From Rubrobacter aplysinae (lineage in GTDB: Bacteria > Actinomycetota > Rubrobacteria > Rubrobacterales > Rubrobacteraceae): a stretch of DNA of 64,000 nucleotides. Position numbers and translations under genes: made by a program. This document shows, in pieces, positions 362-20,509 of this stretch. The notes beneath the pieces were generated by a model. The model saw only the letters and a list, made by a program, of their open reading frames with translations. It was not told where the DNA came from and did no database searches. Each line of letters begins with the position of its first letter. The stretch's first letter is position 1. Location of the stretch: contig NZ_LEKH01000006.1 in the NCBI RefSeq assembly GCF_001029505.1, positions 1 through 64,000 on the forward strand, given 5' to 3'.

Positions 362-550
362 GCCCAGGCTCCCGTGGAAGCACTCGTAAAGGCTCGCGCT
401 GGAGGGTCATGGGCGTATAGAGTGGGCAATCCGAGCATACCCGGCATCATACAGCCCGACCGATAACGGTTCCGGGACCGGAAACGTGAGAAAAAGAACG
501 TAAGAAAAAGAGACAAGGCCCGGCGCGGGTACCGCAGCCGGGCCGGATAG

Positions 551-642
551 CGGAGAGGGAAGGATTTGAACCTCCGGTGCCGGGAGTACCGGCACGACGA
601 TCCCGAAGGATCGCCGCATTAGGCCACTCTGCCACGCTCTCC
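551..642 (-). tRNA. Serine-type tRNA-like gene with abnormal anticodon loop (no serine anticodon)
   Basis: The leftward 92-nt sequence folds as a class II tRNA. It has a GGAGAG/CTCTCC acceptor helix, a serine-style D arm, a very strong 7-bp variable arm (GTGCCGG/CCGGCAC) and a T arm with TTCAAAT. Against the normal tRNA-Ser next to it there is an extra C in the 5' acceptor strand and one extra nucleotide in the anticodon loop. The loop reads CCTTCGGG (complement of 602-609), so it could close into a C(UUCG)G tetraloop hairpin. No NGA or GCU serine anticodon can be placed. It may be a tRNA pseudogene, an allo-tRNA or a non-translational tRNA-like RNA. Confidence 0.7.
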
Positions 643-15902: not shown

Positions 15903-15911
15903 TCAGACGGG
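15903..15911 (+). repeat. Target-site duplication, left copy
   Basis: TCAGACGGG directly abuts the left inverted repeat and is identical to 20501-20509. Confidence 0.85.
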
Positions 15912-15931
15912 GGCTTTGCACCAAAAGGCCA
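15912..15931 (+). repeat. Left terminal inverted repeat
   Basis: GGCTTTGCACC is followed by a tract that matches the right end except at two bases. Confidence 0.85.
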
Positions 15932-15944
15932 ATTAAAGGAAGTT

Positions 15945-15993
15945 TTTTGGTTCAAGTTGCGAATCTGAACCAAAAACCCGCTCTGAACCAAAA
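15945..15993. repeat. Left subterminal repeats of the element
   Basis: The 10-mer TGAACCAAAA occurs at 15966-15975 and 15984-15993 and inverted at 15945-15954. Counterparts lie near the right end. They are candidate transposase-binding sites. The 15984 copy also sits 17 bp before TATAAT (16007-16012), so it may double as a -35 region. Confidence 0.7.
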
Positions 15994-16006
15994 GTCAATT
16001 TATGGA

Positions 16007-16012
16007 TATAAT
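16007..16012 (+). promoter_or_regulatory. Putative promoter -10 of the left element genes
   Basis: TATAAT within GGATATAATCC lies 17 bp downstream of TGAACC (15984-15989). An ATG with a GAGGGAAC ribosome site follows at 16037. Confidence 0.5.
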
Positions 16013-16217
16013 CCGTGTATTCTCCGGTGAGGGAACATGGTATCCCCGGTGAGGGTTGAAGATAGCGGGGAGAGCAATATGGCGCGCACCGTCAATAGGG
16101 GGATGGGGACGCCTAGATTTGTCCAATTGGTCGCAACAACTTTTTGCGTCAATTTGCTAGAAAGAGTGATTCGCTGTACTTGCGAGATTCGGAAAATGGC
16201 TGGGATTCAGCGTACTC

Positions 16218-16592
16218 TTGGCACTCTTGCCAATTATCTTCAACCTGCTGTACGCAGCGACGTTCCCTGTGGACTTGACGCGCATGTACCTACTAGGACG
16301 CGGAGAGCTGCTGTTGCCCGCTGTTGGTTTGGCGGCTTCAACACTAGGGGACTTGGTGCTTACAGATCGGCGCTTCAGCCGCTTAAAGATAATCGCATCC
16401 CTAGCGTGCGTTGCCGTTATAGCCTGCGCTTCCTTCTACTTCGCCTCTGTATCAGGCCAGTACGAGATATCCGCAGAACCCAATACAGACGTGGTGGTCT
16501 GGATATCAATAGGCTTTTATGTATTGGCGGTAATCAGCAGTGGAAGCAGCCTGTACATATCGGAACAGGAGCGTAAAGATGACCAGTCTTGA
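16218..16592 (+). CDS. Membrane protein of the element, N-terminus uncertain
   Basis: The frame encodes four hydrophobic helices (LLALLPIIFNLLYAA, LLLPAVGLAASTLG, IIASLACVAVIACAS, VVWISIGFYVLAVIS) and ends SLYISEQERKDDQS. The first usable start, TTG 16218, has no ribosome site and cuts into helix 1. The frame is open and protein-like back to 16170 (FAVLARFGKWLGFSVL). A well-initiated ATG with GAGGGAAC lies at 16037 in a different frame, so a +1 shift between 16170 and about 16220 would join them. Either a frameshift mutation or recoding is possible. The stop overlaps the next gene by 14 bp. Confidence 0.6.
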   Translation: MALLPIIFNLLYAATFPVDLTRMYLLGRGELLLPAVGLAASTLGDLVLTDRRFSRLKIIASLACVAVIACASFYFASVSGQYEISAEPNTDVVVWISIGFYVLAVISSGSSLYISEQERKDDQS

Positions 16593-16980
16593 TCTCACTG
16601 TTTTCCTAATAGCTAGTGTTTGCGCGGGAGTCTCACTCGGGGCTGCTGTAGCTTCAAGGCGTCGCTATGTACGAGCAAAGAGCCAACTAGACGAATATAA
16701 GAGGCTGTCTGCCTTACGGCAATTGGAGTCTTGGCAAAAGCAGGGCATCTTAGTTATTCAAGGTGAAGCCCTGGAAACGGCTATCTATTGGGAGAAAGTT
16801 AATCCTGAGCCGCTAGAGCACCTAGTTCATGCCGTTCAAACTTTTGTAGAAAGAGAAGGTTTAGAACCTGGCACTCCGAACCCTCTAGTTCTCGCAGGAG
16901 CGGAGCAAGGGACAGCTAATAACAAACTAGACAAGGATGAAAAGCCAAGACAGATAGAGCTAAGAGCGGCATTTGGATAA
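16579..16980 (+). CDS. Single-helix membrane-anchored protein of the element
   Basis: ATG 16579 follows AGGAG at 7-nt spacing. The 133 residues begin with a transmembrane helix (LTVFLIASVCAGVSLGAAVA), then a basic RRRYVRAKS stop-transfer and a cytoplasmic domain with charged helices. No family was recognised. Translation is probably coupled to the upstream membrane protein, and the two may form a complex. The TAA stop lies exactly against the inverted repeat of the nested insertion sequence, so the natural C-terminus may have been lost. Confidence 0.65.
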   Translation: MTSLDLTVFLIASVCAGVSLGAAVASRRRYVRAKSQLDEYKRLSALRQLESWQKQGILVIQGEALETAIYWEKVNPEPLEHLVHAVQTFVEREGLEPGTPNPLVLAGAEQGTANNKLDKDEKPRQIELRAAFG

Positions 16981-17981
16981 TCTACTGGCGATTCTAAAGT
17001 TTAGAAAGCTGCCTCTATGCCGAGTTCGTGAGTCGCCAGTATCAGGACGCAGATGTTATGACAGAGGACCTTGGCTAGAACCTCGTTGACCTGAGCCGTA
17101 TCGCTCTTACCTTTTACCGAGGCTCCGAACTTGCGCTTTATCATGCTGAACGTGGATTCGACGTTGCTCCGGCGGTGGTAGTGATCCATGAAGCCTTCTC
17201 TGTTGAACATGAAGTAGTGGTACATCTTCGCCCACGTCGAATCGTCTTCGGGAACCACGGTATTTGACTTGAAGGGGATGAACGGCGTAGCTCCGAAGCC
17301 GTTCACGAGATCCATGTTCTGCTTGCCGAGGTAGGCTTTGTCTGCCGAGACTTCCCGAAGCTGGAAATTTTCGGCGGTCTGCTTTACCAGCGGCTTGAAG
17401 AAGTAGGAGTCGTGGTGTGTCCAGCCCGAAATATCCATCCCGGTAACTATGTTGGTCCGAACGCCGCAGATAAGGTGAGCCTTGAACCACTCCCGACCCT
17501 GATCCTTCTTTCCGTACTTCTTCTCGTGCCAGCGGGCAAAAGTGCTGGTGGAGAATCCCGAAGCGTCTACGGCGAAATCAGTCTCTACAGACTTCAAAGG
17601 CAAGCTACTCAGAGACACTAGTTCTTTCAGCACGTTAGTGAGGGCGGGATCTGCAAGATACCGATTTACAGAGTTGAAGTGGGCGGCTTTGTCAATTAAA
17701 CCGTCAGCGTAAGCCTCTTGCAGATCAGAGGTAAAACGCCTTGCCGAGAAACCGACATAAACCTTGTAGACGCTAGCAAACACCATATCCGCAAGCGGAA
17801 GTCGCGGTCTACCCTTAGTCTGCTCGGGCTGCTCAATGCCACTACAGAGATCGGCAAGTAGCTCTGTGAAACGCACCTTTTCCTCTACTTGAGCGGCGTT
17901 GTAGGCGGTCCAAGAGCGGGATTTGCTTCCCTCTATCATGCAGTAATTATACTTGACCGCTCAAGCATATACACCAGTAGA
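16981..17981. mobile_element. Nested insertion sequence with DDE transposase
   Basis: TCTACTGGCG at 16981 and its inverted counterpart TCTACTGGTG ending at 17981 bracket the transposase with about 20 and 40 bp to spare. Flanking GGAT and ATCC may extend the inverted repeats imperfectly. No target duplication is evident. Alternatively the transposase is the native one of the 4.6-kb element and the short repeat is chance. Confidence 0.5.
17001..17939 (-). CDS. DDE transposase (IS4/IS5-like fold)
   Basis: The 312-residue RNase-H-type transposase starts at ATG 17939. The catalytic triad is placeable as Asp in V-E-T-D-F-A-V-D-A-S-G-F, Asp in V-S-A-D-K-A-Y-L-G and Glu in Y-H-R-R-S-N-V-E-S-T-F-S-M-I-K-R-K-F-G. 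The N-terminal region (about 1-110) is the DNA-binding part. The frame is intact, so it may be active. It is oriented against the element's other left-hand genes. It might mobilise either the nested IS or the whole element; relatives of the IS903 group give 9-bp duplications like the one outside. Confidence 0.9.
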   Translation of the reverse strand: MIEGSKSRSWTAYNAAQVEEKVRFTELLADLCSGIEQPEQTKGRPRLPLADMVFASVYKVYVGFSARRFTSDLQEAYADGLIDKAAHFNSVNRYLADPALTNVLKELVSLSSLPLKSVETDFAVDASGFSTSTFARWHEKKYGKKDQGREWFKAHLICGVRTNIVTGMDISGWTHHDSYFFKPLVKQTAENFQLREVSADKAYLGKQNMDLVNGFGATPFIPFKSNTVVPEDDSTWAKMYHYFMFNREGFMDHYHRRSNVESTFSMIKRKFGASVKGKSDTAQVNEVLAKVLCHNICVLILATHELGIEAAF

Positions 17982-18043
17982 ATCCGGCTTTTGCAGGATA
18001 AATTCTGCTACAGAACTAGGGTATAATCCAGCTAGAGTAATAG

Positions 18044-18116
18044 TGGGGGCGACGGGAATCGAACCCGCATCACGCGAATTGGAGAGTCCGGCGTTTTGCC
18101 GTTAAACTACGCCCCC
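18044..18116 (-). tRNA. Glycine-tRNA-like gene with 8-nt anticodon loop
   Basis: The leftward 73-nt sequence folds into acceptor GGGGGCG/CGCCCCC with A73, D stem GTTT/AAAC, T arm GCGGG-TTCGATT-CCCGT and a 5-nt variable loop. This scaffold is that of tRNA-Gly. The anticodon stem is only four pairs (CGGA/TTCG) plus a C-C mismatch. The loop is CTCTCCAA (complement of 18079-18086), which equals a Gly(UCC) loop with one extra C. Eight-nucleotide loops are the hallmark of +1 frameshift-suppressor tRNAs. It lies inside the mobile element. Trp(CCA) or Glu(CTC) readings leave the stem unpaired. Confidence 0.7.
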
Positions 18117-18274
18117 ATTGTTACTCTCATCTCAAAAGGGGCTGTGTTGGCGACCTACATCTTGTTTCGGGTATCTGAAATTGGTATACTCGCACGTAAG
18201 CTCCTGGTTTTTGGGCAAATTTCCGGGGCTTTTATCAGGGGTCAGGGGTGTTAGAGCACTCCTGACCTCAGTTT

Positions 18275-18943
18275 TTAGAAATTCAGCGCATTGTTCTCCC
18301 CAACGTTCGGTCTTTCGTTGCTCGTTTTAATCGAAGTTTCTCCACCTGCCAGCTTAGGCAAAAATTCTGTATGCCCCGCCTCTGTTCTGCGGAACTTGTT
18401 CGGCTCGCCACCTCTGGCTTCCTCTACCAGTTCTAGCTTGCCTTGTTTGTGGAGTTCAGTTAGACGATTGGCAATAGCGGATCGGATGCTAGGCAACTTA
18501 GCTTCGGGATAGTCTCGCACGACTCGCTCTCTGACTACCGTCTGACTGATGATCTCCACGCTAGGGTCGGCAAGCGTGCTATCAACGTAACCCCATACAA
18601 CCTTCTGAGGCACGGTTTGCCCCTTCTTGGTTTCAGTGCGCTTTGCAGAGCCATTAGCTGCGGCCCTTGAGTCCTCTTGTGATATGCCGGATATTGCGTG
18701 TTCACTTGGAGAAACCGCGTTGATTTCTTCCGAGTCGCCAAACTTCTCTATCCACCACGCGCGGAATTTTTCAATCTTCTCGTCACGCCGTGCTGCCGCT
18801 TGCCTTACCTCCTCATCATATTCGGAGTGGATACCGCTTACGGCATACCTGAAGAACTCGGAATTTGGTTTGGCGTCCACAGTAGGGCCAATATACCCTC
18901 TACACGGGTTGGCGTCAATGTCGCTTTGTCGTTTTGGCGTCAA
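18275..18943 (-). CDS. Orphan element protein with a possible C-terminal winged helix
   Basis: The open frame encodes up to 222 residues. The N-terminal half is charged (YDEEVRQAAARRDEKIEKFRAWWIEKFGD). The C-terminal half contains L-P-S-I-R-S-A-I-A-N-R-L-T-E-L-H-K-Q-G-K-L-E-L followed by a beta-hairpin-like segment, which resembles a winged helix. No family was recognised. The start is uncertain: TTG 18943 lies inside a 14-bp direct repeat that may be an operator, and a later GTG (about codon 23) is possible. It may be a regulator of the element. Confidence 0.55.
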   Translation of the reverse strand: MTPKRQSDIDANPCRGYIGPTVDAKPNSEFFRYAVSGIHSEYDEEVRQAAARRDEKIEKFRAWWIEKFGDSEEINAVSPSEHAISGISQEDSRAAANGSAKRTETKKGQTVPQKVVWGYVDSTLADPSVEIISQTVVRERVVRDYPEAKLPSIRSAIANRLTELHKQGKLELVEEARGGEPNKFRRTEAGHTEFLPKLAGGETSIKTSNERPNVGENNALNF

Positions 18944-18947
18944 TGTC
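18909..18947. repeat. 14-bp direct repeat at the start of the orphan element gene
   Basis: TTGGCGTCAATGTC occurs at 18909-18922 and 18934-18947, 25 bp apart. It may be an operator for the adjacent gene or a short duplication. Confidence 0.6.
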
Positions 18948-19134
18948 AGCTTGTGATTTGGTGAGAGCGCACATGAAAAACAACCTAGATGCGCTTAATA
19001 AGCCGCGCTAAACCTCGTAGTCAAGCTAAATTGTCGTGCTTGCGCCGTACACTTTACGCCTTCTCCTATCGGCGCTAAAAGTGTGTCAAAGATATTGTCT
19101 TGCCGTGCTTAATCGCTCAGGCTAGAATTGTCGT
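18948..19134. other. Divergent upstream region inside the element
   Basis: The region holds no supported gene. It is AT-rich with repeated GCGCTAA- and CGTGCTTAATC-like words and would hold the divergent promoters of the orphan protein and the KGG peptide. Confidence 0.3.
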
Positions 19135-19296
19135 ATGACCGAAAAGAATAAAGCCGCTCAAGAACTCGGTAGACTCGGCGGCAAGAAGGGCGGCAAGGCC
19201 CGCGCCGAGAAGCTATCTCCTGAACGCCGAAAAGAGATCGCCCGTGAAGCTGCTAAGAAGAGATGGGCTAAAAAGCGAGAGGAAGAAGCTCCTTAA
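19135..19296 (+). CDS. KGG-motif small basic protein
   Basis: The 53-residue ORF (ATG 19135) reads MTEKNKAAQELGRLGGKKGGKARAEK... and ends in AAKKRWAKKREEEAP. The G-R-L-G-G-K-K-G-G-K-A-R-A block followed by L-S-P-E-R-R-K-E-I-A-R-x-A-A-x-x-R-W is a recurrent small-protein motif in bacteria (KGG, stress-induced acidophilic repeat-like), common on plasmids and islands. It is strongly basic and may bind nucleic acid. It is followed nine bases later by the membrane/GAF gene. Confidence 0.75.
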   Translation: MTEKNKAAQELGRLGGKKGGKARAEKLSPERRKEIAREAAKKRWAKKREEEAP

Positions 19297-19305
19297 CGGT
19301 CAGTA

Positions 19306-20019
19306 ATGCTAAAGTTCCTCTCTAAGTACAAGCTAGTATTCGCTATTGGAGCACTTACAGGGCTATCTCAATTAACGGGGCTGCTTCCCAATGTGCTGGG
19401 CTGACTAACGTATGCACTGTTGGTTTGCTCCGTGCTTCTAGCGGCGTACATAAAGTATACGGAGGTCGAGCCGGACCTCCGCTTTGAGGAGAAGAGGACG
19501 TTCTTTTTGGATAGCGTTTGCCTAAACGCTATGGAGCGACTCAGAGAGTTCGATGAGACTGCTCGCCTCAATATAATGGAAGTTGAAGGAATTGGCACTG
19601 AAATCTCTAAATCTTTGAACATCATCTATGATCTATTCGTTGAGCCGAGTCACCCGGACAAGATGATGCCCATGGGCTATACGCAGGGTGTTTGCGGTGA
19701 TGCTGTCCGGAAAGGAGACCTATGTTACGCAGAAATCTCGGACCCTGAGCGACCGACCTTTGGATTGGACGCCGAGCAGCTAAAGAAGACCGAACATGTC
19801 ACTTTCGTGATCAGTGTGCCGATAAGAAGAGCGGTGAAAGGCCCTGGTGGGAAGACGAATCTGACGGATGAAATAATCGGTGTGGTAAACATCGACAGCG
19901 GTAAGCCTAATCCTGAGAGCTTCTACAAGGACACGATCATTGAAGGCGAATCCCTGCTCCAAAGACAGTTTACAGCCCTGCGGGAGATTAGCGAGTATTG
20001 TTCTCGACTCTTGTGTTAA
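19306..20019 (+). CDS. Two-helix membrane protein with GAF-like domain, interrupted by in-frame TGA
   Basis: From ATG 19306 one frame runs to 20019 except for a TGA at 19402-19404. Before it is a helix (LVFAIGALTGLSQLTGLLP); after it, in the same frame, a second helix (TYALLVCSVLLAAYIKY) and a soluble domain with F-F-L-D-x-V, a long amphipathic helix, M-G-Y-T-Q-G-V-C-G-D-A-V and V-T-F-V-I-S-V-P-I-R...I-I-G-V-V-N-I-D-S, which has the strand pattern of a GAF sensor. The stop falls between the helices, where Trp would be natural. If translation starts at TTG 19420 instead, helix 2 is cut. Read it as a readthrough gene, a fresh pseudogene or a truncated active protein. Confidence 0.65.
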
Positions 20020-20157
20020 GGAGGCACTTGATGGAGGTGAGCCGCAGAGTATAATCATAATTTATAGTGGCGCGAGTAGCTCTGTACCTGTAGACTCCAA
20101 GACTACCTAGCGTGAGAGGAGTCAAGCGTGGGTTCGGGCAGGAGGTCGGTAGGTACG

Positions 20158-20304
20158 GTGAAAGAAAACCAGAACATCGTGGTAGTCAAGGGGGCCGCTC
20201 CAAAGAGTGGAACCGAACTTACCAGGGAAAGGATGTCGGAGAACCTACGTTCTCTAAACTCTAGCTGGACGAAAGAGAGCGATAAGGAGCGCACAGACTC
20301 GTAG
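20158..20304 (+). CDS. Small 48-residue protein at the right end of the element
   Basis: GTG 20158 follows GGAGGT (20141-20146). The peptide begins VKENQNIVVVKGAAPKSG and has a hydrophilic, Ser/Glu/Arg-rich tail ending SDKERTDS. An in-frame GTG at 20128 would add ten residues. No family was recognised. It is immediately followed by a strong terminator, which supports expression. Confidence 0.5.
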   Translation: MKENQNIVVVKGAAPKSGTELTRERMSENLRSLNSSWTKESDKERTDS

Positions 20305-20337
20305 ACAGCAACAAACTCGCAGACAGCAATTCATAGT

Positions 20338-20371
20338 GAAAAAAGGCTCTCGGTTAACCGAGAGCCTTTTT
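20338..20371. terminator. Bidirectional intrinsic terminator
   Basis: AAAAGGCTCTCGG-TTAA-CCGAGAGCCTTTTT is a perfect stem with A-tract and T-tract on either side, ending rightward transcription of the element cargo. Confidence 0.9.
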
Positions 20372-20447
20372 GTCGATTGCGTTTACTTTTGCAAGTGGCC
20401 TTTTAATCTACAAGGCCAGACCGATCATCACTCTACAAGCATCAGAC

Positions 20448-20477
20448 TTTTAGTTCAACTTTCCACTTTTTGGTTCA
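20448..20477. repeat. Right subterminal repeats of the element
   Basis: TTTTGGTTCA at 20468-20477 and TTTTAGTTCA at 20448-20457 are inverted copies of the left subterminal 10-mer. Confidence 0.7.
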
Positions 20478-20480
20478 GAA

Positions 20481-20500
20481 TGGCTTTTAGGTGCAAAGCC
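20481..20500 (-). repeat. Right terminal inverted repeat
   Basis: Read inward it begins GGCTTTGCACC and matches the left end at 18 of 20 positions. Confidence 0.85.
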
Positions 20501-20509
20501 TCAGACGGG
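20501..20509 (+). repeat. Target-site duplication, right copy
   Basis: TCAGACGGG is identical to the left copy and directly abuts the right inverted repeat. Confidence 0.85.

What the first reader, a model, noticed from the sequence alone, without database searches (positions are those of the whole stretch)
18044..18116. Element-borne glycine tRNA with an 8-nt anticodon loop (possible four-base decoder)
Seen: a tRNA-Gly-like cloverleaf with perfect acceptor, D and T stems but an anticodon loop CTCTCCAA, one base longer than a UCC loop, on a weakened four-pair stem. Known: 8-nt loops characterise +1 frameshift-suppressor tRNAs such as sufD-type Gly tRNAs. Inference: the element may supply a recoding tRNA, or this is a decaying tRNA acquired during transposition.
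Basis: partly seen in the sequence, partly recalled or inferred. Interest (0 to 1): 0.72.

Follow-up and report, generated by a model that had tools for sequence, protein, structure and literature searches.

The report
Transposon-borne tRNA with loosened anticodon arm
A jumping gene in a Rubrobacter genome carries an odd tRNA that is probably not a four-letter-codon reader; it belongs to a widespread family of transposons that repeatedly carry irregular tRNAs, including the known 'allo-tRNAs', in one fixed place beside the transposase.

Summary
A tRNA gene lies at 18044-18116 on the minus strand, with perfect acceptor, D and T stems, an 8-nt anticodon loop (CUCUCCAA) and a C·C mismatch in the anticodon stem. 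It sits inside a complete 4,589-bp transposon (15912-20500, 20-bp GGCTTTGCACC inverted ends, 9-bp target duplication TCAGACGGG), between a cargo gene and an IS5/IS903-like transposase. The four-base-decoder reading is not supported. The nearest relative element has 7-nt loops in both of its tRNAs. Between the two elements the acceptor, D and T stems are 32/32 identical, while the anticodon arm is 10/18 against 78% in the downstream flank. Bacterial glycine identity elements are absent. The larger finding is that relatives of this transposon in many phyla share the GGCTTTGC ends and 9-bp duplications and recurrently carry a same-strand tRNA directly upstream of the transposase (15 of 87 loci; 0.4 expected). 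tRNA type varies even between sister elements. Acidobacterial members carry 9/3 allo-tRNAs, so this family is a concrete home for allo-tRNAs, whose link to transposable elements had only been suggested. Best mechanism, inferred: a tRNA-shaped RNA-processing tag between cargo and transposase transcripts; missense tRNA cargo and decay remain rivals.

The parts
15903..15911 (.). left 9-bp target-site duplication TCAGACGGG
   Evidence: sequence identity with 20501-20509
15912..15931 (+). left terminal inverted repeat GGCTTTGCACCAAAAGGCCA
   Evidence: 90% complementary to the right end; same GGCTTTGC ends in about 45 relatives
15964..15993 (+). subterminal repeats TCTGAACCAAAA, also found inverted near the right end
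   Evidence: D11, I1, I3
16037..16576 (+). cargo ORF, 179 aa, membrane-like by eye, no Pfam match
16579..16980 (+). cargo ORF, no family match
   Evidence: ATG and Shine-Dalgarno GGAG read by eye
17001..17939 (-). transposase, DDE_Tnp_1, IS5/IS903-like, 312 aa, intact
   Evidence: Pfam 73 bits; NCBIfam IS5_2 120 bits, below its cut-off of 140
17948..17969 (.). palindrome TATACTTGACCGCTCAAGCATA upstream of the transposase, likely operator
   Evidence: read; conserved in L029
18044..18116 (-). irregular tRNA: 7-bp acceptor, 4-bp D, 5-bp T stems perfect; anticodon stem with C-C mismatch; 8-nt loop CUCUCCAA; A73; no encoded CCA
18238..18269 (-). hairpin after the cargo stop codon, 122 nt before the tRNA; terminator-like only when read on the + strand
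18275..18943 (-). cargo ORF on the tRNA's strand, 222 aa, winged-helix-like C-terminus by eye; ends 158 nt before the tRNA
   Evidence: counterpart in L029 797-1387
19135..19296 (+). small basic protein, 53 aa, also present in L029
19420..20019 (+). cargo ORF, 199 aa, weak GAF-like match
   Evidence: E 0.08
20481..20500 (-). right terminal inverted repeat GGCTTTGCACCTAAAAGCCA (read inward)
20501..20509 (.). right 9-bp target-site duplication TCAGACGGG

Best explanation
What it is (shown): an irregular tRNA carried inside a complete IS5/IS903-like transposon, in the slot between the last cargo gene and the transposase, on the same strand as both. This slot is occupied by a tRNA in many members of the family. 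How it works (inferred): it is not kept as a decoder. It is kept for its tRNA shape. It is transcribed with the cargo gene, recognised by the host's tRNA-maturing enzymes through its acceptor and T stems, and cut out. RNase P at its 5' end and the 3' tRNA-processing enzymes then separate the cargo message from RNA that runs on towards the transposase. In most relatives the RNase P cut would leave a strong hairpin as the new 3' end of the cargo message. The anticodon arm is free to drift, and the extra base in the loop is one result of that drift.
For: (a) Position and strand: 15 of 87 related transposases have a default ARAGORN tRNA within 700 nt upstream on the same strand, 0 on the other strand, 2 in the 700 nt downstream, 9 in the other 700 kb; expectation 0.39, P about 4e-19. 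In Rubrobacteraceae seven element loci carry one: window, L029, L051, L052, L053, L054, L057. (b) The tRNA is inside the element in all 9 cases where both ends could be found (window; L086, L100, L107, L115, L116, L119, L123, L145). (c) In the window's own lineage the acceptor, D and T stems are 32/32 identical to L029 while the downstream flank is 78% identical (P 0.0004) and the anticodon arm 10/18; stems against anticodon arm P 8e-5. (d) Across 15 element class-I tRNAs anticodon-stem mismatches are 8/75, acceptor plus T 1/180 (P 3e-4), host anticodon stems 1/175. (e) tRNA type differs between sister elements (L079 Val GAC against L087 Gln CTG; L080, L081, L083), and presence needs about 13 changes on the transposase tree, as if any tRNA will do. 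(f) A same-strand cargo ORF usually stops 28-160 nt before the tRNA (13 of 20), and a GC-rich hairpin, mostly without a U run by eye, ends a few nt before it in most relatives; upstream folding z-scores are lower than for host tRNAs (mean -1.8 against 0.0, P 0.0009). (g) No sigma-70-like promoter lies between cargo and tRNA in the window.
Against: The window and L029 lack the close hairpin: 70-nt upstream z-scores are +0.1 and +0.9, and a conserved block 60-90 nt upstream could be a promoter for the tRNA. In many relatives a small gene on the opposite strand (zinc ribbon or ribbon-helix-helix by eye) lies between tRNA and transposase, so the tRNA need not be part of the transposase message. 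In other lineages the anticodon loop is conserved (L116 against L140, TTCGCAG; L086 against L095, GCA), which fits real decoding there. Most related transposases (about 80%) have no detectable tRNA. The hairpin excess is not strong element by element (z < -2 in 7 of 20). Nothing here shows transcription or cleavage.
Confidence: 0.4

Rival explanations
1. Missense or orthogonal tRNA cargo: the element supplies a tRNA charged by identity elements unrelated to its anticodon, changing decoding in the host, as proposed for allo-tRNAs.
For: Acidobacterial relatives L086, L095 and L109 carry 9/3 tRNAs (9-bp acceptor, 3-bp T stem, G73) with GCA or UAA anticodons; published 9/3 and 8/4 allo-tRNAs insert Ser or Ala in E. 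coli (PMC7609411). L100 and L029a carry G3:U70, the alanine signal. L116 against L140 keep the anticodon loop TTCGCAG while acceptor and T stems change in a compensatory way (sequences). Several relatives encode CCA.
Against: The window tRNA has neither a long variable arm, nor G73, nor G3:U70, and its anticodon arm is mismatched and poorly conserved.
Confidence: 0.25
2. Captured tRNA in decay: a host or earlier element tRNA on its way to a pseudogene, with no function in this copy.
For: Mismatch and extra base in the anticodon arm; L029a has lost its D arm; tRNA presence is patchy on the tree.
Against: All 16 pairs of the acceptor, D and T stems are intact and identical in the relative while the flank diverged; same place and strand in element after element.
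Confidence: 0.2
3. Four-base (GGAG) decoder of the +1 frameshift-suppressor type.
For: 8-nt loop with a U before CUCC; 8-nt loop also in L145.
Against: 7-nt loops in the nearest relative; mismatched anticodon stem; A73 and G2-C71 instead of the bacterial glycine signals; transposase in one intact frame.
Confidence: 0.05
4. Decoy or spare tRNA against tRNA-cutting toxins or defence systems, as proposed for phage tRNAs.
For: Some elements carry defence-like cargo next to the tRNA: SoFic in L104, a Fic protein in L140, PDC-M34A-like in L057.
Against: No anticodon nuclease identified here; tRNA type varies without any pattern tied to cargo.
Confidence: 0.07

Closest known systems
Allo-tRNAs (Mukai et al. 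2017, read through the review PMC7609411)
   Same: Irregular tRNAs with anticodons that do not match their bodies; a link to transposable elements was hypothesised and one allo-tRNA pseudogene overlapped a transposon ORF. Acidobacterial members of the present transposon family carry 9/3 allo-tRNAs.
   Different: The window's tRNA has the normal 7/5 arms and no Ser or Ala identity elements. Here the transposon itself is defined: ends, duplications, transposase, fixed slot, many phyla.
IS903-type members of the IS5 family
   Same: DDE_Tnp_1 transposase; ends GGCTTTG (ISEcl3 ends read GGCTTTGTTGAATAAAT); 9-bp duplications (for IS903, from general knowledge).
   Different: 25% identity; often an N-terminal SWIM zinc finger; cargo genes and a tRNA slot; score below the NCBIfam IS5 cut-offs.
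sufD-type +1 frameshift-suppressor glycine tRNAs
   Same: 8-nt anticodon loop with an extra C.
   Different: No intact anticodon stem, no glycine identity elements, loop length not kept in relatives.
tRNA punctuation of transcripts, and the MALAT1-mascRNA 3' end (general knowledge)
   Same: A stable RNA structure followed by a tRNA-like fold that RNase P can cut.
   Different: Bacterial transposon; cutting not shown; hairpin distant in the window copy.

Membership tests
four-base decoding (+1 frameshift suppressor) tRNA | 8-nt anticodon loop | tested here: met
   CUCUCCAA
four-base decoding (+1 frameshift suppressor) tRNA | intact anticodon stem supporting the loop | tested here: not met
   C27xC43 mismatch plus a G-U wobble
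four-base decoding (+1 frameshift suppressor) tRNA | 8-nt loop kept among homologous copies | tested here: not met
   L029b CUUGCCA, L029a CUUCCAA read by eye, both 7 nt
four-base decoding (+1 frameshift suppressor) tRNA | glycine identity (U73, C2-G71) | tested here: not met
   A73, G2-C71 in the sequence
four-base decoding (+1 frameshift suppressor) tRNA | suppression of a +1 frameshift | not testable with these tools
   needs a reporter
allo-tRNA | 12-bp acceptor branch as 8/4 or 9/3 | tested here: not met
   window 7/5; met in relatives L086, L095, L109
allo-tRNA | Ser or Ala identity (G73 with long variable arm, or G3:U70) | tested here: not met
   A73, short variable loop, G3-C70 in the window
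allo-tRNA | anticodon not matching the body | tested here: inconclusive
   UCC/CUCC on a body nearest Asp(GTC) 73%, but Gly(TCC) 71%
IS5/IS903-like transposon | DDE_Tnp_1 transposase | tested here: met
   73.4 bits, cut-off 23
IS5/IS903-like transposon | GGCTTTG terminal inverted repeats with 9-bp duplications | tested here: met
IS5/IS903-like transposon | NCBIfam IS5 cut-off | tested here: not met
   120 bits against 140
element integrated into a host tRNA gene | tRNA at the element's edge, serving as attachment site | tested here: not met
   tRNA is 2.1 kb from the left and 2.4 kb from the right end

The most novel reading that the evidence does not exclude
A transposon family spread over many phyla keeps a tRNA-shaped RNA as a portable processing tag at the junction of cargo and transposase: RNase P cuts it out and leaves a hairpin-protected 3' end on whatever cargo message is present, a bacterial counterpart of the MALAT1-mascRNA design. 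Allo-tRNAs would be members of this slot that also acquired, or kept, the ability to enter translation.
Probability: 0.28. Interest if true: 0.82.

Novelty: new variant of a known kind. Interest (0 to 1): 0.6.

Why it matters
Allo-tRNAs and other irregular bacterial tRNAs have had no clear genetic home or purpose. Tying them to one transposon family with defined ends, and to one fixed slot beside the transposase, turns a loose suggestion into something that can be tested in culture. It also shows how an 8-nt loop, often read as a recoding tRNA, can arise where the anticodon arm is simply no longer under selection.

Tried and rejected
Phage and plasmid DNA searches with the tRNA and its flanks: no match. 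Plasmid and phage tblastn with the transposase gave only distant IS5 relatives of about 25% identity. Empty-site search with the joined flanks in 39 family genomes: no genome holds both flanks side by side. Conserved element protein as partner of the tRNA: the cargo ORFs next to the tRNA are not one alignable family. Insertion into a host tRNA gene: rejected, the tRNA is internal. A lower ARAGORN threshold to reveal hidden tRNAs in the tRNA-less relatives: at -ps80 the excess over the opposite strand did not grow (44 against 29). Mukai et al. 2017 itself is not held. PDB sequence search and structure prediction were not used, because the question is about an RNA.

Full report
Check of the observation. 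ARAGORN reports a tRNA at 18043-18116 on the minus strand with a four-base anticodon CTCC. Rfam's tRNA family scores 18044-18116 at 53.8 bits. A covariance model made from 35 tRNAs of the same genome scores it 56.2 bits, with all pairs of the acceptor, D and T stems standard, one mismatch in the anticodon stem and an 8-nt loop CUCUCCAA. 'Glycine' is doubtful. The host already has the three usual glycine tRNAs. The element tRNA is nearest to the host's Asp(GTC) tRNA, 73%, with an identical 5' acceptor strand GGGGGCG, then Gly(TCC), 71%. It has A73 and G2-C71, whereas the host's glycine tRNAs have U73 and C2-G71.

The element. The tRNA lies in a low-GC island. Its ends are 15912 and 20500: 20-nt inverted repeats GGCTTTGCACC(A/T)AAAAG.CCA flanked by an exact 9-bp duplication TCAGACGGG. 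The inverted-repeat pattern TTTGCACCNAAAAG has no other match in the genome. The transposase at 17001-17939 is DDE_Tnp_1, nearest to IS5 models but below their cut-off, single-copy and uninterrupted. Its closest named relatives in the genome collection are Rubrobacter MAGs. On the tRNA's own strand the order is: 222-aa ORF (18943-18275), hairpin, tRNA, operator-like palindrome, transposase.

The family. A search with five transposases found 80 relatives in bacterial and archaeal genomes and 7 in viral contigs. A scan for ends found the GGCTTTGC repeat at both ends in 45 of these loci, about 25 of them with a perfect 9-bp duplication. An ISEcl3 copy from an Enterobacter plasmid shows the same GGCTTTG ends, so the family sits beside IS903-type elements. 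Many members carry an N-terminal SWIM zinc finger.

The tRNA slot. With ARAGORN's default settings 15 of the 87 loci have a tRNA on the transposase's strand within 700 nt upstream, none on the opposite strand there, 2 downstream and 9 in the remaining 700 kb. The expectation is 0.39. Wherever both ends were found the tRNA lies inside. The tRNAs are of many kinds: Val(GAC), Gln(CTG), Thr(CGT), Gly(CCC), Ala-like CGC on a long-variable-arm body, 'Leu(GAG)' with G3:U70, and 8-nt or 6-nt loops in L145 and L081. On the transposase tree the label needs 13 changes, 9 of them forced by well-supported branches, and sister elements differ in tRNA. In Acidobacteria, L086, L095 and L109 carry 9/3 tRNAs with a 9-bp acceptor stem, 3-bp T stem, G73 and non-serine anticodons, which is the published definition of an allo-tRNA (PMC7609411). 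That review records only a hypothesis that irregular allo-tRNAs go with transposable elements. The present data give the element.

What selection sees. The only close relative of the window element, in a genome of the same genus (G001, locus L029), has two tRNA-like genes in the slot. Against L029b the window tRNA is 15/15 in the acceptor strands with discriminator, 8/8 in the D stem and 10/10 in the T stem, but 10/18 in the anticodon arm. The downstream flank is 82/105. The stems are thus more conserved than the flank (P 0.0004) and the anticodon arm less so (P 0.03). The loops of L029 are 7 nt; L029a's CTTCCAA, read by eye, differs from the window's CTCTCCAA by one extra base. Over 15 class-I element tRNAs the anticodon stems hold 8 mismatches in 75 pairs, against 1 in 180 for acceptor and T stems together and 1 in 175 for host anticodon stems. 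ARAGORN and the covariance model weigh arms differently, so part of this contrast may come from detection; the window-L029 comparison is free of that. The picture is not uniform. In L116 against L140 the anticodon loop TTCGCAG is unchanged while stem pairs change on both sides, and L086 and L095 keep GCA, so in some lineages the anticodon seems to matter.

Mechanism. A same-strand cargo ORF ends 28-160 nt before the tRNA in 13 of 20 cases, and in most relatives a strong hairpin, mostly without a U run, ends a few nt before the tRNA. Folding z-scores of the 70 nt upstream are lower than for host tRNAs (mean -1.8 against 0.0, P 0.0009), but not in the window or in L029. Little room is left for a separate tRNA promoter in those relatives, and none was detected in the window, although a block conserved with L029 could be one. 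Cargo differs from element to element (DUF6941, Fic including SoFic, DUF5343, small unnamed proteins), so the tRNA belongs to the slot and not to a given cargo. I infer a processing tag: co-transcription, RNase P cleavage at the tRNA's 5' end, and separation of the cargo message from downstream RNA. Shown: place, strand, conservation of the parts RNase P and 3' processing need, relaxed anticodon arm, hairpins in relatives. Not shown: transcription, cleavage, benefit.

Verdict. The feature is real and element-borne. The four-base decoder reading fails its own test. The tRNA is one member of a recurrent, positionally fixed tRNA slot in an IS5/IS903-like transposon family that also carries allo-tRNAs.

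Noticed in passing
window 550-642 (-): Next to a normal tRNA-Ser(CGA) at 725-814 lies a second serine-type tRNA-like sequence (long variable arm, G73) whose anticodon loop is replaced by an 8-bp stem capped by a UUCG tetraloop: an anticodon-less Ser tRNA-like gene. It was not found beside the Ser(CGA) gene in the 11 relatives examined.
   Followed up: partly
L080, L081, L083, L087, L079 and L086, L095, L107, just upstream of the tRNA: The hairpins share loop motifs (AAGTTTGCGG in Actinobacteria, AAACGTTTG in Acidobacteria), as if a structured RNA of its own precedes the tRNA.
   Followed up: no
L079-L086, L095, L100, L109, L119, L122, between tRNA and transposase: A small gene on the opposite strand (zinc ribbon or ribbon-helix-helix by eye) faces the transposase across palindromic sequences, probably its regulator.
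   Followed up: no
L104 1482-2615, L140 4597-5721, L057 309-1268: Cargo genes next to the tRNA include Fic proteins (L104 matches the defence model SoFic, 331 bits) and a DUF5343 protein with a weak match to a candidate defence model.
   Followed up: partly
L100 3347-3418; L081 1252-1322; L083 3459-3524: Weak further tRNA-like matches on the same strand farther upstream, inside the element in L100, suggesting tRNA clusters in some copies.
   Followed up: no
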